From a virus: 64,000 bases of DNA. Every line of letters starts with the position of its first letter. Position 1 is the first letter of the stretch. The position numbers and the translations under genes are program-made. Below are positions 2,557-23,495 of this stretch, piece after piece. The stretch lies in the IMG/VR virus record IMGVR_UViG_3300046694_000291, positions 20,107-84,106 of that record; one strand, written 5' to 3'. The notes below the pieces were generated by a model. That model worked only from the letters and a program-made list of their open reading frames with translations. It had not been told where the DNA came from and ran no database searches.

Positions 2557-3156
2557 ATGAAGATCATGGGAGTCGACCCGAGCATCACCCGGACCGGCAT
2601 CGGCCTGCCGGACCAGACGACGTTCACCGTCTCGTCCCCGAAGCAGGTCACCGGCGACGACCGGCTGGAGTACTACGCCGACCACATCGGGCTCGCGGCC
2701 CGGACCTGCGGCGCGGACCTGGTGGTGATGGAGGACGCGCCGACGGCCCTCCAGGGCAACGCGGGCCGGGTGCTGCTGCACCTCCAGGGCGTCCTCCGGC
2801 TGGAGCTGAAGCGCCAGCACATCCCGTACATGATCCTGAGCCCGAGCACGCTCAAGAAGTTCGCCACCGGCAACGGCTCGGCCGACAAGACGGCGATGGC
2901 GATCGCCGCGATCAAGCGCCTTGGCCGCGAGTACGCCACGAACGACGAGTGCGACGCCGACTGGCTGCGGATCGCGGGCCGGTTCGCATACGGCTACGGG
3001 GAGCCGGTGCCGATCTGGTCGACCAGCTACGTCACCCTGCCCCAGGTGAACCTGGAAGCCCTGCGCTGGGCGGGCACCGGCAAGAAGAGGCACGAGATCG
3101 TGTGGCCGGAGATCGGCGGCCACACGCCGTGGCCCTTGGTGACGCTCAGGGCCTGA
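2557..3156 (+). CDS. ruvC: RuvC-like Holliday junction resolvase
   Basis: 199 residues from ATG 2557, preceded by GAGAGGACC. It has the RNase H-fold resolvase pattern: GVDPSITRTG at the N-terminus (catalytic Asp7), VVMEDAP (Glu59), a GNGSADK segment near residue 105, and CDADWLRIAG with the final acidic pair (Asp133/Asp135). It would cut four-way junctions arising in recombination-dependent replication or before packaging. It is the only plus-strand gene in the first 10 kb and is divergently transcribed from the ParB-like gene. A strong hairpin (3161-3199) follows immediately. An in-frame ATG at 2566 is a possible later start. Confidence 0.85.
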   Translation: MKIMGVDPSITRTGIGLPDQTTFTVSSPKQVTGDDRLEYYADHIGLAARTCGADLVVMEDAPTALQGNAGRVLLHLQGVLRLELKRQHIPYMILSPSTLKKFATGNGSADKTAMAIAAIKRLGREYATNDECDADWLRIAGRFAYGYGEPVPIWSTSYVTLPQVNLEALRWAGTGKKRHEIVWPEIGGHTPWPLVTLRA

Positions 3157-3160
3157 ACAG

Positions 3161-3199
3161 CCGAGAGCCCGGCCTCCCCCTAAGGAGCCGGGCTCTCGG
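3161..3199. terminator. bidirectional terminator between convergent genes
   Basis: A perfect 13-bp inverted repeat (arms 3161-3173 and 3187-3199, CCGAGAGCCCGGC) with a 13-nt loop lies between the convergent RuvC-like gene and the minus-strand gene ending at 3211, so it can serve both strands. Confidence 0.75.
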
Positions 3200-3210
3200 T
3201 GCCTGGTGGA

Positions 3211-3654
3211 TCAGGCCTTGGCGAACGGGTCGGCGGGCTCCGCCTTCTTCCCTGCGAGGTAGTCGCGCGCAAGCTGCGCCTGCTCCGCGTTCGGCTCGGC
3301 CAGGACCCACGGGGCCGACTGGCCCGGCTTCTTCTGGGCCTCGTCCTGGATCAGGACCCCGAGGATCATCTTCGGGTGCCCGGTGGCCTCGTCCACGCCG
3401 TGCTTCTCGTTGAAGAGCGCCTGGCGCTTCATGGCCGAGATGAGAACGCGCTGGAAGACCATCGTGTCCTCGACCTCCTCGACGCCGTCAGGACCGTCCA
3501 GGACGACGAAGTCGACGCGTACCGCGTCCGTCTCGCCGTGGACCGTCTTCTGGGCCTGGACGTACTCCGTGGGGGTGACCAGCAGGAGCTGGTCGGCGTA
3601 CTCGGTGATGCCCGCGCCCCCGGCGGAGCCGGACTTGAACGGGTCGTTGCCCAT
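3211..3654 (-). CDS. unknown early protein, possibly ssDNA-binding
   Basis: 147 residues from ATG 3654, with AAAGAGGAA upstream. The sequence is beta-rich in its first 100 residues (LLLVTPTEYVQAQKTV, VRVDFVVLDG, MILGVLIQ) and ends in an acidic/proline tail (ADPFAKA). The N-terminus also carries a DPF. This size, beta-rich core, terminal aromatic tail and location between a resolvase and a RecB/Cas4-type nuclease would suit a single-strand DNA-binding protein, but I see no family signature, so the function stays unassigned. Confidence 0.6.
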   Translation of the reverse strand: MGNDPFKSGSAGGAGITEYADQLLLVTPTEYVQAQKTVHGETDAVRVDFVVLDGPDGVEEVEDTMVFQRVLISAMKRQALFNEKHGVDEATGHPKMILGVLIQDEAQKKPGQSAPWVLAEPNAEQAQLARDYLAGKKAEPADPFAKA

Positions 3655-3791
3655 GAGCTTCCTCTTTCACTTGATCTTTGCTGGATGGTGAGGTGGAGGG
3701 CTGGACCAGGCGTACATCCGCCTGCCCTCACCGAGGTGGTTTGACCCGCCTGGCCCTCCTGTTGTGCACACCCTCAGCCTACCTGTCCCGG

Positions 3792-11629: not shown

Positions 11630-11929
11630 ATGGACTGGAGTGAGCGACTGCTCACCGTGGTCGGACCGGGGGCTTCTGTGAGCGGTCTGGAGACAGACCC
11701 CTTCACCGGAGCGGGGCTGACGATCTCTGTTCCCGAGCACTTTCCTGACAAGGACGAGGTGCTCTCGATCGCCCCGAATCACCCGTGCAGGCATGGCGAA
11801 GGTACGGGCTGTGACTGTGTCTGGTGCCATGCCTGCTGGAAGTGGAGCCGGGACAACGGTGCGGTGGATGAGAACGGTTGGCACTACCTGAGCTGTATGC
11901 ACCGGACAGGGTGGAGGAGCGAACCGTGA
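11630..11929 (+). CDS. unknown cysteine-rich protein
   Basis: 99 residues from ATG 11630, with GGGAGACAGACG upstream. The C-terminal half has the metal-ligand-rich segment HPCRHG, CDCVWCHACWKW, then a late Cys-Met-His. It resembles a zinc finger of the type found in primase-associated or nuclease-associated proteins. It ends in a GTGA overlap with the primase-polymerase frame, so it could be an accessory zinc subunit. This role is inference from position only. Confidence 0.55.
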   Translation: MDWSERLLTVVGPGASVSGLETDPFTGAGLTISVPEHFPDKDEVLSIAPNHPCRHGEGTGCDCVWCHACWKWSRDNGAVDENGWHYLSCMHRTGWRSEP

Positions 11930-14900
11930 CCACAGTAGAGGCACCTCCGGAGCTGTACGACTTCCACCAGCGTGAGCTGGAGGAGAGCTGCATCTCGGCC
12001 GAGGTGCAGACGGCCCGGCGGTACGAGACCCTGTACGGCACCGACGAGGACAAGGCCCGGCTCAAGGAGCTGCGGGTCCCGAGATGGGCCTGGCGGGACG
12101 AGACGGCGTTCCCGGCCCTGCTGCTGCCCATGTACCGGGTGACCGGCGAGGAGATCGGGGTCCAGTTCAAGCCCGCACTCCCGCAGGAGGCCCCCGGCGG
12201 CAAGCTCCAGAAGTACGCCAGCCAGTCCGGCACCCCGAACCGGCTGGACGTGCCGCCGGGCGTGGCGGACCTGGTGCGGGACCCGAGCGTGCCGCTCTGG
12301 ATCACCGAGGGGATCAAGAAGGCGGACTGCCTGGCCAGTCACGGCAAGGCAGCGCTGACACTGACCGGCGTGTTCAACTGGCGCAGCAAGATGGGCACGC
12401 TGGGGGACTGGGAGGACGTCCCGCTCCAGGGCCGTGACGTGGTGATCTGCTTCGATGCCGACACCCGGGACAAGCGCACTGTCATGCTCGCGATGCAGCG
12501 CCTCGGCCGCTGGCTGGAGAGCAAGCAGGCCCGGCCGCTGTACCTGATCGTGCCCCCCGAGGTGGAGCGGGAGGGCGGAGCCCGGGTCGCGGTCAAGGGG
12601 GTGGACGACTTTCTGTACGCGGGCGGGACGATGGACGGCCTGCGGGACGCGGCCGTGCGGCAGCTCGCCACCGGTACGCAGGACGCCGCGTTCACCGACG
12701 CGATGCTGACGGACACCGTGGTCAACGAGACGCTGGAGGGCCGCTTCAAGTGGGCCAAGGGCCTCGGGTGGATGCAGTGGACAGGCAAGCTGTGGGAGGA
12801 GGCGAGCGACGCCTCCGTGGTGGAGGCAGTACGGCAGTGGGGGCTGGAGCAGTTCCAGCTCGTGCTGGACGAGCAGCGGCGCGACGCCAACCGTGACCTC
12901 GGGGCACAGATCGAGGGCTGGCGGTCCACCCTGAGCAAGGCCAAGATCAGCAACCTGGTCAGCCTGGCGCGGGGACCGCTGGAGTGCGCGGCGGTGGACT
13001 TCGACGCGGACCCGGACAAGCTCAACTGCCCCAACGGGATCGTCGACCTGCGCACGGGGACACTGACCCCGGCCGACCCCGACGCCCTGATGACGAAGAT
13101 CACGGGAGCGGACTTCGTCAGGAACGCCCGGCACCCGGACTGGGACAAGGCACTGAAGGCCCTGCCGCCGGAGGTCGTGGACTGGTTCCAGATCCGCATC
13201 GGGCAGGCGATCACCGGTCACACGACGAGCGACGGCAAGGTGCTCGTGTGCCAGGGCGGCGGCGCGAACGGGAAGAGCACGGTGTACGACGGCATCGCCA
13301 TGAGCGTCGGCAAGTACGCCGTCCAGGTGAGTGACCGGGCGATGCTCGGCGGGGCGAGCGACAACCACCCGACCGAGATCATGGACCTGATGGGCGCGCG
13401 GTACGCGGTTCTGGAGGAGACGCCCGAGGCGCGCAGGCTCGACACCAACCGGCTCAAGAAGCTCGCCGACACCCGGGAGATCACCGGCAGGCGTATCCGG
13501 CAGGACCCGGTGACGTTCGAGGCCACGCACAGCCTGTTCATCAACTCCAACTACCGGCCGGTGGTCGACGAGACCGACCACGGCACCTGGAGGCGGCTGG
13601 CGCTGGTGGTGTGGCCGTACACCTTCCGGGAGCACCGGGGGCAGCTCAGGGGCCCGAACGACCGGCTCGGCGACCCGACCCTGCGGGAACGTATCAAGCT
13701 CGACCCGCAGGCCCTTGAGGCGGCGCTCGCGTGGGCGGCCGAGGGGGCCAGGCGCTGGTACGAGCTGGAGAAGATCATGCCCCACCTGCCGGAGCGGGTG
13801 GAGGCCGACACCCTGGCGTGGCGCAAGGAGTCGGACCTGATCCTGGCGTTCATCGACGACCATCTCCAGTTCGACCTGGAGGCGTGCGTACAGGGCACGG
13901 AACTACGGACCGTGTTCAACACCTGGGTCAAGGAGAAGGGCGGCCGGGAGTGGGGCGACAAGACGTTCAACACCCGGTTCGGCGGTCATGACCTGTGCGC
14001 CCAGAACAACGTCGAATACAAGGTCATGAAGAACCCCCGGGACCTCAGCTCGCTCGGGGGCCGGGGGCCGCACCAGGGGATGGTCCGAGCGTGGCTCGGA
14101 GTGGCCTGGAGGGCTGAAGAGCCCGGATCAGGCGAAAGTAATGGGCAGGTAAAAGACCCGTTCAGCGGCCCTAACCATGATCGGGTTACGGGAGTTACAC
14201 CTCCAGGTATAACGGAAAAGTTTCCTACGCGGGGAGCCGTTAACTCTCAAGGTGTAACTCCCGTAACCGGTAACAGTTGTACACCGAAAAACGAGGACCC
14301 GATGACCAAGGAAACCGACTACGGGACCGACCCGTTCGCGCCCGTCCAGGCGGCCCCGGAGGCCCCCTCTCCCGCCGTCTCCCGGCCTGCGCTCCCCGTC
14401 CTGGCCGGACCGGTCGGCTGGGACATCGAGGCCCCCTCGTCCAAGAAACTGTTCACGTTCCGTAGTCAGCCAGGTGCGCCGTACGCCCGGCTGAACGGAC
14501 TCGTGGACGAGAACGGACAGGAGGTGATCACCAACGACCCGGCCGAGCTGATCGAACTGCTGGAGCGGGCCCCGATGATCTACGGCCACAACATCTTCCG
14601 GTTCGACCTGATGGCACTGGCGTGGCACCACGGGGCCGACTACGACCGGCTGGCGAAGAAGGCCTGGGACTCCTACGTGGACGAGGCGACCTGCGACCCC
14701 TCGGGCGGGCAGTACCTCGCCCCCTGGAACCAGAAGGGCTACTACGGGCTGAACGACGCCCTGGTGCGCCGGGGCGAGCCCGGCAAGACCGACCACCTGC
14801 CCGAGCTGGCGAGGGAGTACGGTGACCCGTCCCTGGCGGGCAAGGCACGGGAGGAGGACGGGTACGAGAAGATCCCGCCGGACAACGAGCGTTACCGGTC

Positions 14901-16293
14901 GTACCTGTCCGGTGACCTTGGGGCCACCGGCCGCCTGTACCGCAAGCAGCAGGCCGAGCACCCCGAGCGTATGGACTACCGGCGCCGGGAGATGAAGGTC
15001 GCCTGGATCCAGAACCGGATGACGCTGTCCGGCTGGAAGATCGACGTACCCCTGCTGCGGGCCCGGGTGGCCGAGGAGGCGGAGAAGAAGCAGGCCAGCC
15101 TCCAGTGGCTGGCCGAGAACGCGGGCGTCCCCCTGACCGAGACCAAGAGCCGTGGACGCGGCTCCAGGAAGGAGTTCTACGAGGAGGCGCGCAAGAGCCC
15201 CCTCGGCTCGAACGCCGGACGTGAGGCGCTGGAGCGGGCGTTCAGGGACCGGGGCCTGCCGTACGTGCTCACCACGGAGAGCGGCGTGCTCGCGCTCAAC
15301 AAGGACGCCATGGGCGTGGGGAGCTACATGGTCGGCAAGGGCGCCAGTGGCCAGGTTCTGCCCGGCCTGCTGAACCCGCTGCGGAAGGAGCGCACCCCGG
15401 ACGCCGACTGGAACGCGATCGACGAGATGGCCGGTCATATCCGGACCGTCACCACCGCCGTGGCCAAGTACCAGGAGATCATGGACCACCTGACCGGCGA
15501 CCGGGTGCACGGCCACGTCGGCGAGACCCAGGGCTCGGGCCGGTGGGCGATGGTGAAGCCGAGCGTGACCAACCTCGGCAAGCGCGGCGGCAAGGTGATC
15601 CAGCGGGCGCCGTTCATCGCCGACGACGGCTGCGTGCTGATCGCCTTCGACCTCGACCAGGTGGACATGCGGGCGTTCGCCGGACACTGCGGCGACCCCG
15701 AGTACGCGGGCATGTTCATCCGGGGCGAGGACCCGCACTCCATGATCGCCACGATGGTGTTCGGACGGGCCGACGGCGAATGGCGCGACCGGGCCAAGGC
15801 CTCCGGTCACGGCTGGAACTACGGCCTGAGCGTGAACGGGCTCGTGAACCAGGGCATCGAGCGGTCGCTGGCGGAGCGGTTCGACGCCGGTATGAACGAG
15901 AGCTACCCGGCCCTGTGCTCCTGGCGCAGCGAGGTGCGCAGCCGGGGCGAGTCCGGGGAGCTGCTGGACAACGGCTTCGGGCGCCTGATGCGGGTGGACC
16001 CCCGCCGGGCCTACACCCAGGCACCGGCCCTGATGGGCCAGGGAACGGCGAGGGACATCCTGGTCGAGGGGCTGCTGCGGCTGCCGGACGAGTACGTGCC
16101 GTGGATGCGCGGCGTGGTGCATGACGAAGTGATCTTCAACGTTCCGGAGGACCGGGTGGAGGAGTGCATCACCACCGTGACCGCCGCCCTGACGTTCGAC
16201 CTGGCCGAGGTGAGCACGCTGCACCCGGTGCCGATCACGACCGGGGCCAGCAAGGCCGCACACAGTTGGGACGGTTGCTATGTCAAGGACTGA
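11926..16293 (+). CDS. primase-helicase / family A DNA polymerase in one frame
   Basis: 1,455 codons from GTG 11926. Part 1: a DUF3854/TOPRIM-like region (WITEGIKKADCL about residue 124; VVICFDAD about 171), then a P4-type SF3 helicase with Walker A GGGANGKST (about 445). Part 2 begins near Met793 (14302) and holds a 3'-5' exonuclease with GWDIE (Exo I), YGHN...FD (Exo II) and YLSGD (Exo III), all catalytic acids kept. The polymerase follows with motif A AFDLDQVDMR (about 1241), motif B RDRAKASGHGWNYG (about 1288) and motif C VVHDE (about 1397). A lower-GC linker with an inverted repeat separates the parts. GAGGA sits 5 nt before ATG 14302, so a free polymerase could also be made by internal initiation. 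Confidence 0.88.
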   Translation: MTTVEAPPELYDFHQRELEESCISAEVQTARRYETLYGTDEDKARLKELRVPRWAWRDETAFPALLLPMYRVTGEEIGVQFKPALPQEAPGGKLQKYASQSGTPNRLDVPPGVADLVRDPSVPLWITEGIKKADCLASHGKAALTLTGVFNWRSKMGTLGDWEDVPLQGRDVVICFDADTRDKRTVMLAMQRLGRWLESKQARPLYLIVPPEVEREGGARVAVKGVDDFLYAGGTMDGLRDAAVRQLATGTQDAAFTDAMLTDTVVNETLEGRFKWAKGLGWMQWTGKLWEEASDASVVEAVRQWGLEQFQLVLDEQRRDANRDLGAQIEGWRSTLSKAKISNLVSLARGPLECAAVDFDADPDKLNCPNGIVDLRTGTLTPADPDALMTKITGADFVRNARHPDWDKALKALPPEVVDWFQIRIGQAITGHTTSDGKVLVCQGGGANGKSTVYDGIAMSVGKYAVQVSDRAMLGGASDNHPTEIMDLMGARYAVLEETPEARRLDTNRLKKLADTREITGRRIRQDPVTFEATHSLFINSNYRPVVDETDHGTWRRLALVVWPYTFREHRGQLRGPNDRLGDPTLRERIKLDPQALEAALAWAAEGARRWYELEKIMPHLPERVEADTLAWRKESDLILAFIDDHLQFDLEACVQGTELRTVFNTWVKEKGGREWGDKTFNTRFGGHDLCAQNNVEYKVMKNPRDLSSLGGRGPHQGMVRAWLGVAWRAEEPGSGESNGQVKDPFSGPNHDRVTGVTPPGITEKFPTRGAVNSQGVTPVTGNSCTPKNEDPMTKETDYGTDPFAPVQAAPEAPSPAVSRPALPVLAGPVGWDIEAPSSKKLFTFRSQPGAPYARLNGLVDENGQEVITNDPAELIELLERAPMIYGHNIFRFDLMALAWHHGADYDRLAKKAWDSYVDEATCDPSGGQYLAPWNQKGYYGLNDALVRRGEPGKTDHLPELAREYGDPSLAGKAREEDGYEKIPPDNERYRSYLSGDLGATGRLYRKQQAEHPERMDYRRREMKVAWIQNRMTLSGWKIDVPLLRARVAEEAEKKQASLQWLAENAGVPLTETKSRGRGSRKEFYEEARKSPLGSNAGREALERAFRDRGLPYVLTTESGVLALNKDAMGVGSYMVGKGASGQVLPGLLNPLRKERTPDADWNAIDEMAGHIRTVTTAVAKYQEIMDHLTGDRVHGHVGETQGSGRWAMVKPSVTNLGKRGGKVIQRAPFIADDGCVLIAFDLDQVDMRAFAGHCGDPEYAGMFIRGEDPHSMIATMVFGRADGEWRDRAKASGHGWNYGLSVNGLVNQGIERSLAERFDAGMNESYPALCSWRSEVRSRGESGELLDNGFGRLMRVDPRRAYTQAPALMGQGTARDILVEGLLRLPDEYVPWMRGVVHDEVIFNVPEDRVEECITTVTAALTFDLAEVSTLHPVPITTGASKAAHSWDGCYVKD
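14184..14268. repeat. 19-bp perfect inverted repeat of GTTAC units, candidate replication origin
   Basis: Arms 14184-14202 (GGTTACGGGAGTTACACCT) and 14250-14268 are exact reverse complements separated by 47 nt. A further GTAAC follows at 14270. The stretch 14130-14300 is visibly lower in GC than the flanks and encodes a linker with no domain. Iterated short repeats inside or beside a primase gene recall P4-type origins. Origin function is inference. Confidence 0.45.
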
Positions 16294-17922: not shown

Positions 17923-18681
17923 ATGACCACGGAGTACATCGAGACCAGGATGATCCCGCTCAGTGAGCTGACCCTGTTCCCGGGCAACGCCCGGCGGGGC
18001 AACCGGAAGAAGCTCCTGGAGTCCCTGGAGGCCAACGGCCAGTACCGCTCCCTGATCGTGCGGGACACGGGTGGTGAGCTGATCGTGCTCGCGGGCAACA
18101 ACACCATGCAGGCCCTGGAGGAGCGCGGCGACGACCGGGCCCGCTGCGAGGTGGTCGAGTGCGATGATCAGACCGCGCTCCGGGTCAACCTGGTCGACAA
18201 CAAGGCCAACGACGAGGCCACCTACGACGACCGGGCGCGCGCCGAGCTGCTCGGCATGCTGGACGGGCTGGAGGGCACCGGCTACGACGAGGAAGAGGTC
18301 GACACGCTGGTCGCCCGGTTCGAGGAGGAGGAGTTCACCGAGGTCGCCGAGCCGGAGGTCGCCGAGTTCAACGACGACGCCGAGGAGCGCCAGGCCCGGG
18401 TCCGCTCCCACGGCGGGGACGACAGCAAGACCATGGAGTCCCGGGGTATCCGGGACATCTTCATCCCCCTGCCGGTGGCACAGGCCGACGAGCTGGGACG
18501 TCTGATCATGAAGCTGCGTGAGACCTGGGGCGCGGCACCACAGGGCGAAGTGCTGCTCAAGGCGGCACGGGTGGCGCTCGGGGTAGCGGTCCACGCCGGG
18601 GACAACCGGGCCGAGGCACCTCGGCCGGACGAGCTGATGAGCGCGGCCGAGGTCGTGTTCGACCCCCAGGACCCCGAGTGA
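17923..18681 (+). CDS. ParB-like domain protein of the base-modification cluster
   Basis: 252 residues from ATG 17923 (GAGAGGAACAGC upstream). The first 95 residues form a canonical ParB/Srx domain: MIPLSELTLFPGNARRGNRKKL cut at the NxRxG motif, then LLESLEANGQYRSLIVR, then LAGNNTMQALEE (the GNxxxxA signature). An acidic helical tail follows. In other phages ParB-like domains sit next to PLP enzymes, transferases and oxygenases that hypermodify DNA bases, and some ParB relatives hydrolyse nucleotides. That is also the setting here. The next gene starts inside its stop (GTGA). Confidence 0.75.
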   Translation: MTTEYIETRMIPLSELTLFPGNARRGNRKKLLESLEANGQYRSLIVRDTGGELIVLAGNNTMQALEERGDDRARCEVVECDDQTALRVNLVDNKANDEATYDDRARAELLGMLDGLEGTGYDEEEVDTLVARFEEEEFTEVAEPEVAEFNDDAEERQARVRSHGGDDSKTMESRGIRDIFIPLPVAQADELGRLIMKLRETWGAAPQGEVLLKAARVALGVAVHAGDNRAEAPRPDELMSAAEVVFDPQDPE

Positions 18682-19772
18682 TCGAGCTGACCGAGGGCAT
18701 GGACTTCCGGCGCATCGAGCTGCGTCAGGAGGTCTTCCTGCGCTTCTACGAGTGGAGCGTGAAGTACAACAGCTTCCCCGGCGGGGTGCACTACGTGCTC
18801 CCGTACGTGGCCGAGGCCCTGGAGCTGGACACAGAGAGCCGTTACTGGCTGGCCTGGCTCAACGCCAACACCCAGAACCCTGTCACCTCCCTCCTGCTCC
18901 TCCAGGCCGCCCCCCGGCCCCGGGACTGGAAGGCGGCCGTCGACTTCTGGCGCGCCAACTACCGCTCGCTCGACTGGGACACCGACCGCCGGTACCACAA
19001 GGCCCGCTTCGAGGACGCGCTCACCGGCTATGCCTCGGCCACGGACTGCTCCTGCTCCATGCCGCAGCACCGGTACTTCCGCTCGGCCGGGGGCGACTGG
19101 ACCGGCTGGTGGGAGCGGGCGTTCGCTCTGCCGACCATGGGCCGTCTGAGCACGTGGTCGTACCTGGAGTACCTGCGCATCCTGCTCGGCCCGGCTGTCG
19201 TGCCCGACGCCGACACGCTGATGGTCGAGGACATCCAGGGCAGCCGGTCGCACCGCAACGGGCTCGCACTCGTGCTCGGGCACGACCACCTGATCGTGGA
19301 CAAGCAGCTCGGTCGGCCCGGCATCACGGACGCGGTCTACGACCGGGACGTGCTGGAGTACCTGGGCGAGGAGGCGCACAGTCTGTTCTCCGTGGCGCAG
19401 CAGCGCATCGGGGCCGGGGCCGACCTGCTCTCCCTGGAGTCCGCTCTCTGCACGTACAAGAGCTGGCACAAGCCCAACCGCCGCTACCCCGGCGTCTACA
19501 ACGACATGCTGTACAACCGGCTGGTGGGGGCGGAGAACAGGTTCGGCTACCGGTTCGGTCTCATCTGGGAGGCACGGGCCGCGTCCCTGCCGGAGCGCCT
19601 GCTGCTGGAGAAGCAGACGTACGACCCGGGCCTGAGCCCGGTCAAGCAGAACTGGTACCTCCAGACGGGCCAGGTCATCAACATGACGGAGGACTGGTCA
19701 TGCTTCCGGAACGACTTCGAGCAGAAGGTGGCGCTCCACGAGTTCGGAAACCGGGGCCGTCCGTGGATCTGA
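18678..19772 (+). CDS. amino-acid:DNA transferase / aGPT-PPlase-like protein
   Basis: 364 residues from GTG 18678. The N-terminal 110 residues follow the helical pattern of alpha-glutamyl/putrescinyl thymine pyrophosphorylase-like proteins: FYEWSVKYNSFPGGVHY, then RYWLAWLNANTQNPVTS, then SLDWDTDRRYHKARF. The C-terminal half keeps regularly spaced Trp, Tyr and Arg. In phages with hypermodified thymine these enzymes displace the pyrophosphate on activated 5-hydroxymethyl bases with an amino acid. It overlaps the ParB-like gene by 4 nt and is followed directly by a PLP enzyme, as in known modification clusters. Family assignment comes from recognition of the pattern, not from a search. Confidence 0.6.
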   Translation: MIELTEGMDFRRIELRQEVFLRFYEWSVKYNSFPGGVHYVLPYVAEALELDTESRYWLAWLNANTQNPVTSLLLLQAAPRPRDWKAAVDFWRANYRSLDWDTDRRYHKARFEDALTGYASATDCSCSMPQHRYFRSAGGDWTGWWERAFALPTMGRLSTWSYLEYLRILLGPAVVPDADTLMVEDIQGSRSHRNGLALVLGHDHLIVDKQLGRPGITDAVYDRDVLEYLGEEAHSLFSVAQQRIGAGADLLSLESALCTYKSWHKPNRRYPGVYNDMLYNRLVGAENRFGYRFGLIWEARAASLPERLLLEKQTYDPGLSPVKQNWYLQTGQVINMTEDWSCFRNDFEQKVALHEFGNRGRPWI

Positions 19773-19780
19773 GGCACTGG

Positions 19781-20629
19781 ATGAGCCCGGTGCAGGAGCG
19801 CGACGGCCGCTGGTACAAGCGCGAGGACCTCTGCGCCCTCCCCGCCGGAGTCAACGGCGCCAAGCTCCGCGCCTGCGACCACCTGATCCGGCAGGGCGCC
19901 GCAGCGGGCAAGACCCGCGTCATCTCCGCCGCCTCGGTCCTGAGCCCGCAGAACGCCATGGCCTCGGTGCTCGCGCGCCGGTACGGCATGCGCTGCACGG
20001 TCGTGCTCGGAGGGGTCGGCCCCGGCTCCTGGCGCAAGCACACCGCCGTCCAGGTCGCCATCGACCACGGCGCCACCTTCGACTTCATCCGGGTGGGGTA
20101 CAACCCGGCGCTCCAGCGGCGCGCCCGGGACCTGCATGAGCTGGACCCGCAGGCCTACTGGCTCCAGTACGGCATCACCACCCCCGAGGACGCCTCGGCC
20201 CGGGAGCTGCGCGCCTTCCACCAGATCGCCGCAGACCAGGTCGCCAACCTGCCCGAGCAGATCAAGACGTTGGTCATCCCGTTCGGCTCGGGCAACACGG
20301 CCGCCGGGGTGCTCATGGGCCTGAACCAGCACCGTCCCCCGGCCCTGGAACGTGTCGTGCTCGTCGGCATCGGGCCCGACCGGCGCCGCTGGCTGCGCGA
20401 CCGCTTCGACTTCATGGGCGTGAGCCTGCCGGTGTTCCGTCACCTCGATCTGCACGGCACCGGCTACGCCCAGTACTCGGACAAGATGCCTGGCCAGGCC
20501 GATGGCATCGTGCTCCACCCGACCTACGAGGGCAAGGTCGTCCGCTACCTGGACGAGAAGGCACCCGACTGGTGGGTGCGCAGGGACGGCACCACTTGTC
20601 TCTGGATCGTAGGAGGGCCGCTCAAGTGA
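19781..20629 (+). CDS. type II-fold PLP-dependent enzyme (ACC deaminase/desulfhydrase-like)
   Basis: 282 residues from ATG 19781 (GAGG 6 nt upstream); GTG 19763 is an alternative. Family landmarks: WYKREDL (about 11-17), GVNGAKLR with the PLP-binding Lys28, SPQNAMASVLARRYGM (substrate loop), and FGSGNTAAG (168-176, phosphate-binding loop). It is shorter than typical ACC deaminases (about 330-340). In phage thymine-hypermodification clusters a PLP enzyme acts on the amino acid already joined to the base, for example by decarboxylation. Its place after the transferase suggests that role. Confidence 0.75.
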   Translation: MSPVQERDGRWYKREDLCALPAGVNGAKLRACDHLIRQGAAAGKTRVISAASVLSPQNAMASVLARRYGMRCTVVLGGVGPGSWRKHTAVQVAIDHGATFDFIRVGYNPALQRRARDLHELDPQAYWLQYGITTPEDASARELRAFHQIAADQVANLPEQIKTLVIPFGSGNTAAGVLMGLNQHRPPALERVVLVGIGPDRRRWLRDRFDFMGVSLPVFRHLDLHGTGYAQYSDKMPGQADGIVLHPTYEGKVVRYLDEKAPDWWVRRDGTTCLWIVGGPLK

Positions 20630-20712
20630 TCGAGTGCCGTTGCCCCCGCTGGCCGACCCCGGCCGAGGGCCACCGCCATAACTGCCCGATGAAGATCCTG
20701 GAGAGTCAGTGA
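20626..20712 (+). CDS. 28-residue Cys/His peptide
   Basis: GTG 20626 lies in a GTGA overlap and has AGGAGG 9 nt upstream. The peptide has four metal-ligand-type residues near the start and middle (CRC, then HRHNC), compatible with one zinc knuckle. It is directly followed by another short frame in a TGATG overlap. It is too short to assign and is kept because ribosome-binding site and spacing are good. Confidence 0.4.
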   Translation: MIECRCPRWPTPAEGHRHNCPMKILESQ

Positions 20713-20855
20713 TGACCAAGCAGAAGACCCTCGTACCGATGTCGCCGGAGCGCCGGGCAGCCGTCTACGCCCGGACCAACGGCACCGACCAGCGCCTGAC
20801 CCCGGCGCAGGACCGCCGCATCCGCAAGGCAGCCCGGAAGGCGCAGCGCTCATGA
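20712..20855 (+). CDS. small basic protein (47 residues)
   Basis: ATG 20712 overlaps the previous stop (TGATG) and the stop overlaps the next ATG. The sequence is strongly basic (RRAAVYARTNG, DRRIRKAARKAQR) with one long helix, compatible with nucleic-acid binding. Overlap on both sides supports reality. Function unknown. Confidence 0.5.
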   Translation: MTKQKTLVPMSPERRAAVYARTNGTDQRLTPAQDRRIRKAARKAQRS

Positions 20856-21013
20856 CGAAAGCAGGCACCCACGGAACCAAGGTCAAGCGCCTCGCACGCG
20901 AACTCCAGAAGCGCGAAGAGATCCCGTACACCGAGGCGTTGCGGCGCGTACTGGCCGCAGGCCCGAAGGAGAGTCCAGTGGTGAACCTCAGTCCGACCAA
21001 GGCGCAGCGATGA
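20852..21013 (+). CDS. small helical protein (53 residues)
   Basis: ATG 20852 overlaps the previous stop (ATGA), and its own stop overlaps the start at 21010. The protein is basic at the N-terminus (KVKRLARELQKREEIPYTEALRRVL), a possible ribbon-helix-helix or short DNA-binding helix pair. No family proven. Confidence 0.5.
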   Translation: MTKAGTHGTKVKRLARELQKREEIPYTEALRRVLAAGPKESPVVNLSPTKAQR

Positions 21014-21552
21014 CCTACCTTCCGCAGCCCGGGGACATCGGGCTCACCGTCATCACTGGCTGGGGGCGGTTCATCCGCCTCGGCCAGTGGCTCAACGGGG
21101 ACGGCTTCGCCGACTATGAACACGCCTTCGTCGTGTCCGAGTCCAGCAGCAAGTTCCAGGACAAGATGATCGTGGAGGCGATGCCCGGCGGGGCGCAGCA
21201 CGTGCGTAACTGGCACGACCCGGAGCACACGGTCTACCTGCGCTGCCCCGACCGGTACCGGGAGGCGGTCGCTGCCTCGGCCCGGGGGTTCGTGGGCGTG
21301 CCGTACTCCGTGGCCGACTACTTCGCGCTCGCCGCGCACCGGCTGCACATCCCCGCGCCCCACCTCAAGAAGTTCGTCCGCAGCTCCGGCCACATGATCT
21401 GCTCCCAGCTCGCCGACACTGCGGCGGCCGAGGGCGGCTGGCACCTGTTCGAGGACGGCCGCTGGCCCGGGGACGTCACGCCCGGCGACCTCTACCGGCT
21501 GTACCAGGCGCAGCGCGCTCAGCGCATGAGGACCGGGGACGTGTCACGGTGA
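21010..21552 (+). CDS. permuted NlpC/P60-like (YiiX-type) cysteine hydrolase
   Basis: 180 residues from ATG 21010. The start LPQPGDIGLTV, a middle EHAFVV (His), and a late HMICSQLADTAAAEGGW (Cys) give the His-before-Cys order of circularly permuted papain-like amidases. Family members cleave acyl or amide bonds. There is no signal peptide. The position inside the modification cluster raises the idea that it acts on an amide or ester of the modified base, but a lysis-related or host-directed role is equally open. Confidence 0.55.
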   Translation: MTYLPQPGDIGLTVITGWGRFIRLGQWLNGDGFADYEHAFVVSESSSKFQDKMIVEAMPGGAQHVRNWHDPEHTVYLRCPDRYREAVAASARGFVGVPYSVADYFALAAHRLHIPAPHLKKFVRSSGHMICSQLADTAAAEGGWHLFEDGRWPGDVTPGDLYRLYQAQRAQRMRTGDVSR

Positions 21553-21806
21553 CTGAGGATTGGAAGCGCTACGTCGTCACGGCAGGGGATCTGCGTGCGC
21601 AACTCTCCGCTGTACCCGATGACACCCCCGTCATCCTGAGCAAGGACGCGGAGGGCAACAGCTACTCGCCGCTCAGCTCGGTGGACGCGATCCATGTCTA
21701 CGAGCCTGAGAGCACCTGGTCCGGTGAAGTGCGCGACACCACGGACCCGGACTATGAGGCGGACCCCGGGGACACCCGGGTCGTACTGCTGGGACCGGTG
21801 AACTGA
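21549..21806 (+). CDS. unknown acidic protein (85 residues)
   Basis: It starts at GTG 21549 in a GTGA overlap and ends one base into the kinase start. The pattern VTAGDLRAQLSAVPDDTPVILSKD recalls small phage proteins of the DUF-type 'strand-helix-strand with VxL' fold, often found near nucleotide metabolism genes. No catalytic motif seen. Confidence 0.55.
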   Translation: MTEDWKRYVVTAGDLRAQLSAVPDDTPVILSKDAEGNSYSPLSSVDAIHVYEPESTWSGEVRDTTDPDYEADPGDTRVVLLGPVN

Positions 21807-22402
21807 TGATCAACAACCTGCTCTACCTCGTGGGCCCGCCGGGCGTCGGCAAGTCCACCGTCGCCCGGGAGCTGACCTCCGGCTGGGACAAGGAGGTGAT
21901 GCGCTCGGTCCCCGTGCCGCACACCCGGCTGCTGCACCCCAGCACGCGCCGGATGCTCGGGCTGGAGCTGGGCGTGCCCCGGGAGCAGTTCCCCGGCACC
22001 GACACCCTCGCCATGGACATCTCGCCCCGCGCGCTCGCCTTCCTGTCCACGGTGCTCGCCCCGTTCGCCCTCGGAGAGGGCTCACGGCTGGCTACGCGGC
22101 CGTTTCTGGGCGAGCTGGCACGGGCGGGCGTCGCAGTCACGCTCGTGCGCCTGACGGCAGACGAGGAGCTCCTCACCGCGCGCTGGCAGGGCCGGGGAGC
22201 CAAGCAGAACCCGAGCTGGCGCAAGGGCGCGGCCACGCGGTCCGACCGGCTGGCCGACTGGTTCCTCACCCAGACCTCGGAGCACCGCACCGGCTTCCGC
22301 ACCTACCTCGACCTCGACGCCACCGAGGCCACCCCGGCCGAGCTGGCCGACAGCATCCGGGACCGCTTCCCTCTCATCGACCTGAGAGAATCAGCGGCAT
22401 GA
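21806..22402 (+). CDS. P-loop kinase, candidate hydroxymethyl-base DNA kinase
   Basis: 198 residues from ATG 21806. It has a clean Walker A (GPPGVGKST, residues 10-18) after a hydrophobic strand, a middle VTLVRLTADEELLTARWQGR resembling the LID region of AAA-like/adenylate-kinase-type kinases, and a C-terminal YLDLDATEATPAELA typical of small nucleotide kinases. In phage hypermodification clusters such a kinase phosphorylates the 5-hydroxymethyl base in DNA before transfer. That function is inferred from the TET/JBP, transferase and PLP neighbours. Confidence 0.65.
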   Translation: MINNLLYLVGPPGVGKSTVARELTSGWDKEVMRSVPVPHTRLLHPSTRRMLGLELGVPREQFPGTDTLAMDISPRALAFLSTVLAPFALGEGSRLATRPFLGELARAGVAVTLVRLTADEELLTARWQGRGAKQNPSWRKGAATRSDRLADWFLTQTSEHRTGFRTYLDLDATEATPAELADSIRDRFPLIDLRESAA

Positions 22403-22605
22403 TTCGACGAGCCGTGTTCGTGCTGCTGTCCCCGGCGGTGTTCCTGCCGTTCGGGCTGCTGGCCGTGTGGTCGGGGCTGCGCAGCGTCGGGTGGTGGCTG
22501 AGCACCGGGGTGTGGAAGCTCCCCGAAGAGTTGCCGCCGTCCCGCCTCGACGCGCTGGGTGTCCGGGTCTGGAACAGGCTCTCCTCCTGGACGGAGGCTT
22601 CATGA
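22399..22605 (+). CDS. small membrane protein (68 residues)
   Basis: ATG 22399 (ATGA overlap) opens a frame with a hydrophobic N-terminus (residues 5-35, VFVLLSPAVFLPFGLLAVW then WWL) and a soluble C-terminus rich in Trp. One or two membrane segments are predicted. The stop overlaps the TET/JBP-like start. Function unknown. Confidence 0.55.
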   Translation: MIRRAVFVLLSPAVFLPFGLLAVWSGLRSVGWWLSTGVWKLPEELPPSRLDALGVRVWNRLSSWTEAS

Positions 22606-23495
22606 TCAGCATCCGTGCCCGCACCCGGGTCCCCCAGGCAGAGCTGGACCTCAAGGTCGGCAAGGTGCTCGGCCCGGACAGCTTCAACGTTCTCATGACC
22701 GGGCCGACCCGCGTCCTCCAGCCCAACGGCAAGCTGCTGTGCGTCTACCTGCCGGGGGCGATGAAGGGCTTCGTCACCGAGGAGCAGTACCAGATCCTCC
22801 ACGGCCTGCGCAGCCAGATGACCAACGCCCGGGGCGCGGCGTCCGGGTCGACCGCTGTGCGCGCCGGAGCGCAGAAGCGGCAGTACTACATGCACGTCAG
22901 TAGCAACATCATCGGGGCCATCGACCCCATCAGCACGTACAAGTACTGCCGCCTGACCTCCTGGACCGGCGCGAACCTGCCGAGCTGGAAGGCGCTCCAG
23001 CCCGCCCTTAAGCGGGTGGGCGACCAGCTCCACACCCACGTGCCGGAGCGGTACGACGCGCAGATGGAGGAGATCGAGCAGACGCACCCGGACTGGGTCG
23101 TACCCGGCACCCCGTTCACCACCATCACGGTCAACAACACCTACCCGACCGGCATGCACACCGACAAAGGCGACCTCGACAAGGGCCTGAGCACGATCTT
23201 CACCCTGCGCCGGGGCAGCTACACCGGGGGCACCTTCCTCTTCCCCGAGTTCCGCATCGGGGTCGACATGCAGGACAACGACCTGATCCTGATGGACGCG
23301 CACCAGTGGCACGCCAACACGGCCATCACCTGCGCCTGCGGCCGTAAGGTCACCCGGTACTGCGAGGAGTGCGGGGCCGAGCGGATCAGCGTGGTGAGCT
23401 ACATGCGCACCAACATGACCCGCTGCGCGAGCGAGGCAGAGGAGATCAAAAGGGCCCAGGATCACCGCGAGAAGTTCAAGGGCGCGGGCCGTTAG
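22602..23495 (+). CDS. TET/JBP-like 2-oxoglutarate/Fe(II) dioxygenase
   Basis: 297 residues from ATG 22602. The core has the double-stranded beta-helix iron site: YPTGMHTDKGD (His186-x-Asp188), GGTFLFPEFRIGVDMQDNDLIL (cut here), HQWHAN (His237), and a C-terminal RISVVSYMR with the 2OG-binding Arg. Between His237 and that Arg is a four-cysteine insert (C244, C246, C254, C257), probably a zinc knuckle. TET/JBP proteins oxidise the methyl of thymine or 5-methylcytosine in DNA. It closes the cluster begun at 17219 and precedes a possible terminase gene. Confidence 0.75.
   Translation: MISIRARTRVPQAELDLKVGKVLGPDSFNVLMTGPTRVLQPNGKLLCVYLPGAMKGFVTEEQYQILHGLRSQMTNARGAASGSTAVRAGAQKRQYYMHVSSNIIGAIDPISTYKYCRLTSWTGANLPSWKALQPALKRVGDQLHTHVPERYDAQMEEIEQTHPDWVVPGTPFTTITVNNTYPTGMHTDKGDLDKGLSTIFTLRRGSYTGGTFLFPEFRIGVDMQDNDLILMDAHQWHANTAITCACGRKVTRYCEECGAERISVVSYMRTNMTRCASEAEEIKRAQDHREKFKGAGR

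What the first reader, a model, noticed from the sequence alone, without database searches (positions are those of the whole stretch)
17923..23495. Candidate DNA-base hypermodification pathway built on a TET/JBP oxygenase
A ParB-like protein, an aGPT-PPlase/amino-acid:DNA transferase-like protein, a type II PLP enzyme, a P-loop kinase and a TET/JBP-like dioxygenase lie in one overlapping gene chain. In phages with hypermodified thymine, kinase, transferase and PLP enzyme act in that order on 5-hydroxymethyluracil that is made before replication. Here no dUMP hydroxymethylase is visible and the oxygenase would instead oxidise a methyl group in finished DNA. The combination predicts a base with an amino acid-derived side chain, possibly with a new chemistry.
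Basis: partly seen in the sequence, partly recalled or inferred. Interest (0 to 1): 0.88.

Follow-up and report, generated by a model that had tools for sequence, protein, structure and literature searches.

The report
TET-started thymine hypermodification in an actinophage
An uncultured phage, probably of Streptomyces-like bacteria, carries a compact gene set predicted to hang an amino acid-derived group on thymine in its DNA, starting with a TET/JBP-type oxygenase where well-studied phages use a nucleotide hydroxymethylase; the idea was already in print, but gene-content evidence across about 70 phage records now supports it and makes it testable.

Summary
The finding is real. The window is part of an 84-kb IMG/VR phage record. 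ParB-like, amino acid:DNA transferase (ADDT), type II PLP enzyme, P-loop kinase and TET/JBP oxygenase are all confirmed by profile, and the TET also by fold. Forty-five distinct viral loci carry ADDT, PLP, kinase and TET on one strand within 3.2-5.5 kb. The decisive new evidence is gene content: 0 of 37 TET-bearing records have a thymidylate-synthase-family hydroxymethylase, but 27 of 34 records with ADDT and PLP and no TET do (Fisher p = 2e-13). Those enzymes carry the dUMP-type Asn. The swap happened at least three times on the ADDT+PLP tree. C5-cytosine methyltransferases are nearly absent. So the TET most likely oxidises thymine in finished DNA to 5hmU; the kinase activates it, ADDT adds an amino acid and PLP decarboxylates it. 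ADDT and PLP belong to the phage ViI families, not the M6 ones, so the likeliest product is ViI-like 5-(2-aminoethoxy)methyl-dU, not a new base. The general idea is in print (Tonitrus, PMC11955845; from memory Iyer 2013). No enzyme activity or base analysis is available.

The parts
17923..18681 (+). ParB-like protein (252 aa), predicted DNA-binding or targeting partner
   Evidence: phrog_723 E 1.8e-38; precedes the cassette in most related loci
18678..19772 (+). Amino acid:DNA transferase (ADDT; aGPT-PPlase2-like), ViI-type family
   Evidence: PF18724 E 1.3e-12; phrog_3271 E 6.5e-75, the family of Vi01_199; distant to the solved glycinyltransferase 8z2m, profile E 8e-8
19781..20629 (+). Type II PLP enzyme, D-cysteine desulfhydrase/ACC deaminase-like; predicted decarboxylase of the DNA-bound amino acid
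   Evidence: PF00291 E 1.1e-9; phrog_3650 E 4.3e-74, the family of Vi01_182; candidate PLP-binding Lys28 and the HPxYEGK motif invariant in 10 sequences
21010..21552 (+). Permuted NlpC/P60-like cysteine hydrolase, accessory; role in the pathway unproven
   Evidence: AF2 model pLDDT 83.8; best fold 3kw0 cysteine peptidase, E 1.3e-3, prob 1.00, TM 0.56; H38, E56, C131 invariant; inside the cassette only in the nearer relatives
21549..21806 (+). DUF6225-like small protein, below the Pfam cut-off; probably a bystander
   Evidence: PF19735 E 1.8e-4
21806..22402 (+). P-loop kinase, predicted 5-hydroxymethyluracil-DNA kinase
   Evidence: PF18751 E 1.3e-27; phrog_800 E 2e-14, the family that holds M6 gp54 and Vi01 orf67; Walker A GPPGVGKST intact
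22414..22605 (+). Small hydrophobic protein between kinase and TET; function not assigned
   Evidence: gene call; a homologous stretch precedes TET in L010
22602..23495 (+). TET/JBP-family Fe(II)/2-oxoglutarate dioxygenase, predicted thymine hydroxylase acting on DNA
   Evidence: PF12851 E 5.2e-17; H186, D188, H237, R261 invariant; AF2 model pLDDT 92.8 with nearest folds NgTet1, CcTet, TET2, CMD1

Best explanation
The cassette is a post-replicative thymine hypermodification pathway. The TET/JBP oxygenase hydroxylates the methyl group of thymine in replicated phage DNA to give 5-hydroxymethyluracil, possibly guided by the ParB-like protein. The P-loop kinase phosphorylates the hydroxymethyl group, the ADDT displaces the phosphate with an amino acid, and the PLP enzyme decarboxylates it. 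Because transferase and PLP enzyme are of the phage ViI families, the likeliest amino acid is serine and the likeliest product is 5-(2-aminoethoxy)methyl-deoxyuridine, which would protect the DNA from host nucleases. Shown here: gene identities, conserved clustering, intact catalytic residues, and interchangeability of TET with dUMP-type hydroxymethylase. Inferred: thymine as substrate, order of steps, product, protective role. The NlpC/P60-like protein is accessory and may be unrelated.
For: Profiles and fold. Clustering of ADDT, PLP, kinase and TET on one strand in 45 of 45 distinct loci. TET-bearing records: 0 of 37 have PF00303 (the 38th record there, AlanGrant, has no TET in its cassette stretch). 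Records with ADDT and PLP but no TET: 27 of 34 have PF00303 (Fisher p 1.8e-13). Within the clade sharing the same kinase family it is 14 of 16 (p 5e-11). The TS-family enzymes examined, including those of M6 and ViI, carry Asn at the base-selecting position, not the Asp of dCMP hydroxymethylase (PMC6400193). At least 3 switches between TET and TS on the ADDT+PLP tree; a TS clade with cultured Glutamicibacter phage Montesquieu is nested within TET lineages, close to the window's clade. C5-MTase PF00145 in only 2 of 38 and 1 of 43 TET-set records, and not detected in the scanned proteins of this record. ViI-type ADDT and PLP.
Against: No base analysis or enzyme assay exists for this phage. The kinase family also occurs without TET, ADDT or PLP next to the terminase in cluster B1 mycobacteriophage Newman, so it is not exclusive to this pathway. 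ADDT identity to ViI is only about 25 percent, so serine is a guess from family placement. The record may be incomplete. Seven records with ADDT and PLP have neither TET nor a detectable TS-family member, so another 5hmU source may exist.
Confidence: 0.76

Rival explanations
1. Cytosine route: the TET oxidises 5-methylcytosine (made by host or phage) to 5hmC, and the kinase, transferase and PLP enzyme build on 5hmC.
For: Phage TETs that have been assayed act on 5mC (own knowledge of Burke 2021). Structural neighbours NgTet1, TET2, CcTet and CMD1 were solved with 5mC DNA. Three related records do hold a C5-methyltransferase.
Against: C5-MTase is absent from nearly all TET+ADDT/PLP records and was not found in this one. 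The same ADDT, PLP and kinase families work beside dUMP-type hydroxymethylases in TET-less phages.
Confidence: 0.09
2. The 5hmU comes from a hydroxymethylase missing from this incomplete record, or from the host, and the TET does another step such as further oxidation.
For: The record is linear and perhaps a fragment.
Against: 0 of 37 TET-bearing records have a TS-family enzyme, including whole cultured genomes Zemanar, LittleMunchkin, Tonitrus and LilMcDreamy.
Confidence: 0.06
3. The kinase belongs to DNA packaging or nucleotide metabolism and only sits near the cassette, so the pathway lacks an activation step or uses another one.
For: Same family beside the terminase in Newman without the other genes; PHROGs labels the family terminase small subunit.
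Against: It is in the cassette in 45 loci with TET+ADDT+PLP and 25 with ADDT+PLP but no TET. The same PHROG holds M6 gp54 and Vi01 orf67, the assigned 5hmdU kinases (assignment from own knowledge and PMC6449724).
Confidence: 0.08
4. The enzymes act on something other than DNA bases, for example tRNA, a nucleotide pool or a small molecule.
For: PLP and kinase families are broad.
Against: ADDT and TET/JBP are both nucleic-acid base modifiers and are linked in many phage lineages.
Confidence: 0.03

Closest known systems
Salmonella phage ViI thymidine hypermodification (5-(2-aminoethoxy)methyl-dU)
   Same: Same ADDT family (phrog_3271) and PLP family (phrog_3650); kinases in one broad family (phrog_800)
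   Different: ViI makes 5hmU before replication with a TS-family dUMP hydroxymethylase (Vi01_060c); here a TET replaces it. ViI genes are scattered; here they form one cassette.
Pseudomonas phage M6 pathway (5-(2-aminoethyl)-dU)
   Same: ADDT, PLP and kinase in the same order in one cassette
   Different: M6 has a TS-family enzyme, an extra gene (gp53) read as the radical SAM enzyme, and different ADDT (phrog_6364) and PLP (phrog_7093) families
Predicted system of Rhodococcus phage Tonitrus and related actinophages (LittleMunchkin, LilMcDreamy, Zemanar)
   Same: ParB, TET/JBP, ADDT (aGPT-PPlase2) and Ploopntkinase3 at one locus; published as a predicted thymine hypermodification system for Tonitrus
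   Different: No PLP enzyme of this family was found in those cassettes; Zemanar has the ADDT nearest to the window's (49 percent identity); the Tonitrus, LittleMunchkin and LilMcDreamy ADDTs are more distant
Glutamicibacter phage Montesquieu
   Same: ADDT 49 percent identical, PLP, and two Ploopntkinase3-like proteins in one run
   Different: Carries a 516-aa TS-family pyrimidine hydroxymethylase and no TET
Kinetoplastid JBP1/JBP2 (base J)
   Same: TET/JBP oxygenases that hydroxylate thymine in DNA (own knowledge)
   Different: No J-DNA-binding domain was found by Pfam here, and the next step is phosphorylation and amino acid transfer instead of glucosylation

Membership tests
TET/JBP dioxygenase | Profile match above curated cut-off | tested here: met
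   PF12851 62 bits against a cut-off of 34.9
TET/JBP dioxygenase | HxD...H iron site and 2OG-binding Arg | tested here: met
   H186, D188, H237, R261 invariant in 15 and in 52 sequences
TET/JBP dioxygenase | TET-like double-stranded beta-helix fold | tested here: met
   Foldseek best hits NgTet1, CcTet, TET2, CMD1, E 1e-12 to 5e-9
TET/JBP dioxygenase | Oxidation of a pyrimidine methyl group in DNA | not testable with these tools
   needs enzyme assay
Thymidine hypermodification pathway (M6/ViI type) | dUMP hydroxymethylase (TS family) supplying 5hmU | tested here: not met
   Not found in the scanned proteins of the record; 0 of 37 TET-bearing relatives
Thymidine hypermodification pathway (M6/ViI type) | 5hmU-DNA kinase family member | tested here: met
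   phrog_800 and PF18751; activity not tested
Thymidine hypermodification pathway (M6/ViI type) | Amino acid:DNA transferase | tested here: met
   PF18724 48.4 bits against a cut-off of 26.2; phrog_3271
Thymidine hypermodification pathway (M6/ViI type) | PLP enzyme of the ViI family | tested here: met
   phrog_3650 E 4.3e-74; candidate catalytic Lys conserved
Thymidine hypermodification pathway (M6/ViI type) | Hypermodified thymidine in virion DNA | not testable with these tools
   no virions; needs LC-MS
TET-based cytosine hypermodification of phages | C5-cytosine methyltransferase supplying 5mC | tested here: not met
   No PF00145 hit in the record's scanned proteins; 2 of 38 relatives
TET-based cytosine hypermodification of phages | TET-associated glycosyltransferase (PF20691) | tested here: not met
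   Not among the Pfam hits of the record; two GT2 proteins lie elsewhere in the record

The most novel reading that the evidence does not exclude
The final base is not the ViI base but a new one, either because this ADDT uses another amino acid or because the conserved NlpC/P60-like enzyme in the cassette trims or acylates the side chain, with ParB-guided, sequence-specific placement that only post-replicative oxidation of T allows.
Probability: 0.2. Interest if true: 0.82.

Novelty: new variant of a known kind. Interest (0 to 1): 0.62.

Why it matters
In the characterised amino acid-thymine phages, 5hmU is made as a nucleotide before replication. A TET entry would make the modification post-replicative and possibly sequence-directed, would give a bacterial-virus parallel to base J, and would assign a function to a gene set seen in cultured actinophages whose products carry labels such as queuine tRNA-ribosyltransferase, oxidoreductase, adenylate kinase and terminase small subunit. 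The exclusion pattern gives a clear test in cultured phages.

Tried and rejected
(1) The 5mC route, lowered because C5-MTases are nearly absent and because of the swap with dUMP-type hydroxymethylases. (2) Vi01_196 (guanylate kinase annotation) was first put in the kinase alignment A7 as the ViI kinase; it is a different PHROG (phrog_4409) and was dropped; Vi01 orf67 is the phrog_800 member. My Ploopntkinase3 profile does not directly match M6 gp54 or ViI orf67; the link runs through phrog_800 only. (3) AlanGrant was listed in the TET set for but the local profile finds no TET in its cassette stretch; counts here use 37. (4) PF12851 gave no control hits, so the TET-negative set was searched again with the A4 profile and three positive records. 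(5) A genome-contig search with the single TET protein found nothing; the alignment search found Streptomyces africanus and Haloechinothrix alba. (6) Near DNA search in phage records found no close cultured relative. (7) The key papers Iyer 2013, Lee 2018 and 2021 and Burke 2021 are not held, so statements from them rest on memory. (8) Base-recognition residues of the TET pocket were not decisive: D191 aligns near residues that differ among TETs, and no rule separates T from 5mC.
Full report
What was checked. The window is bases 20107-84106 of an 84,106-base IMG/VR virus record, about 69 percent G+C, with terminase, portal, tail, lysis, WhiB and DUF397 genes. Its nearest named relative by terminase and TET is a 92.7-kb contig in Streptomyces africanus, so a Streptomyces-like host is likely. 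Profile searches confirm ParB-like, ADDT, PLP, Ploopntkinase3 and TET/JBP proteins at the stated place. A Pfam scan of gene products of the whole record found no thymidylate synthase family member and no C5-cytosine methyltransferase.

Anatomy. ParB and ADDT overlap by 4 bases; PLP follows within 9 bases. Then come two small ORFs, a permuted NlpC/P60-like protein, a DUF6225-like protein, the kinase, a small ORF and TET. TET iron and 2-oxoglutarate ligands (H186, D188, H237, R261) are invariant among 52 relatives, and the AlphaFold model (pLDDT 92.8) is closest to NgTet1, CcTet, TET2 and CMD1. The PLP candidate catalytic lysine and the kinase Walker A motif are intact. The NlpC/P60-like protein keeps a His-Glu-Cys set and folds like Bacillus cereus cysteine peptidase 3kw0; it is in the cassette only in the nearer relatives, so its part in the pathway is open.

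Conservation. Three alignment-based scans of IMG/VR gave 171 distinct loci with at least one core gene. Forty-five carry all of ADDT, PLP, kinase and TET, all on one strand, median span 4.0 kb. Gene order varies (ParB-ADDT-PLP-kinase-TET in 19, ParB-TET-ADDT-PLP-kinase in 11), which argues that they are kept together for function and not by descent alone. A further 30 have ADDT, kinase and TET without PLP.

The deciding test. If TET makes 5hmU, phages with TET should not need a dUMP hydroxymethylase. Of 37 records with TET beside ADDT or PLP, none has a PF00303 match. Of 34 records with ADDT and PLP and no TET (checked with PF12851 and with the broader profile A4 and positive controls), 27 have one. 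Fisher p is 1.8e-13, and 5e-11 within the group sharing the same kinase family. Relatedness inflates such numbers, so a tree of concatenated ADDT and PLP was built: well supported branches force at least three changes between TET and hydroxymethylase. One hydroxymethylase clade, which includes cultured Glutamicibacter phage Montesquieu, is nested within TET-bearing lineages. The TS-family proteins read here have Asn at the position where T4 dCMP hydroxymethylase has the cytosine-selecting Asp (PMC6400193), as do those of ViI and M6, phages reported to use 5hmdU (PMC6449724). So the downstream enzymes take 5hmU, and the TET is the alternative way to make it. C5-methyltransferases are rare in TET records (2 of 38 and 1 of 43), against the cytosine route.

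Which product. The window's ADDT is in phrog_3271 and its PLP in phrog_3650, the families of the Vi01 proteins, not those of M6 (phrog_6364, the glycinyltransferase type, and phrog_7093). ViI DNA contains 5-(2-aminoethoxy)methyl-dU and M6 DNA 5-(2-aminoethyl)-dU (PMC6449724). No radical SAM gene, as in M6, is in the cassette. The best guess is the ViI base, made by serine transfer and decarboxylation (steps from own knowledge of Lee 2018 and 2021, not held here). This is an inference from family placement at 25-39 percent identity.

What is already known. [quoted passage not shown] Iyer and colleagues (2013, from memory) predicted pathways starting from TET/JBP-made hydroxymethyl pyrimidines. 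Cultured relatives with TET, ADDT and kinase include Zemanar, LittleMunchkin, LilMcDreamy and Tonitrus. New here, as far as I can tell, are the addition of the ViI-type PLP enzyme in a TET cassette, the mutual exclusion of TET and hydroxymethylase with repeated swaps, and the resulting product prediction.

Limits. No chemistry has been measured. Contigs may be incomplete. The kinase family also occurs alone next to the terminase in mycobacteriophage Newman. Seven ADDT+PLP records have neither TET nor a detectable TS-family member. The ParB-like protein's targeting role is conjecture.

Noticed in passing
window 11926-16293 (+): One 1455-aa protein joins a primase/helicase half (DUF3854, D5_N, DUF5906) to a family A DNA polymerase; the fusion is conserved full length at about 79 percent identity in L007 and L009.
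   Followed up: partly
G000:C1 8624-11642 and 16461-17108 (left of the window; L002): Two GT2 glycosyltransferases, an NAD-dependent sugar epimerase and methyltransferase-like genes; could decorate capsid or DNA. Not linked to the cassette here.
   Followed up: no
L025 (Mycobacterium phage Rich) 816-3594: ParB-like, TET, TET-associated glycosyltransferase (PF20691), a gene annotated glucosaminyl deacetylase, and Ploopntkinase3: a sugar-based alternative next to the same kinase and TET.
   Followed up: partly
L022 (Mycobacterium phage AlanGrant) 1-3152: A gene whose N-terminal part is ParB-like and whose C-terminal part resembles N4/N6 DNA methyltransferases, then PLP and kinase, but no TET or ADDT in this stretch and no TS family in the genome: source of the substrate unexplained.
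   Followed up: partly
L139, L140, L143, L146, L160: ADDT+PLP records with neither TET nor a detectable TS-family hydroxymethylase; another 5hmU source or a very diverged enzyme.
   Followed up: no
L024 (LilMcDreamy) 2656-3759; L020 3045-3926; L023 3761-4642: Extra enzymes in TET/ADDT cassettes: an aspartyl/asparaginyl hydroxylase-like protein, and 293-aa proteins with weak NAD-binding matches; candidates for further side-chain tailoring.
   Followed up: no
L016 3333-7318: A TET 49 percent identical to the window's, with ParB and, by eye, a radical SAM-like and a glycosyltransferase-like ORF, but no ADDT, PLP or kinase.
   Followed up: no
PHROGs and GenBank annotations: Kinases of this pathway are labelled terminase small subunit or adenylate kinase, and TET proteins queuine tRNA-ribosyltransferase, oxidoreductase or SNF2 DNA repair protein.
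   Followed up: yes
L031/L244 (Streptomyces africanus contig): A relative with TET, kinase and a more distant ADDT that also has two adjacent frames matching C5-cytosine methyltransferases.
   Followed up: no
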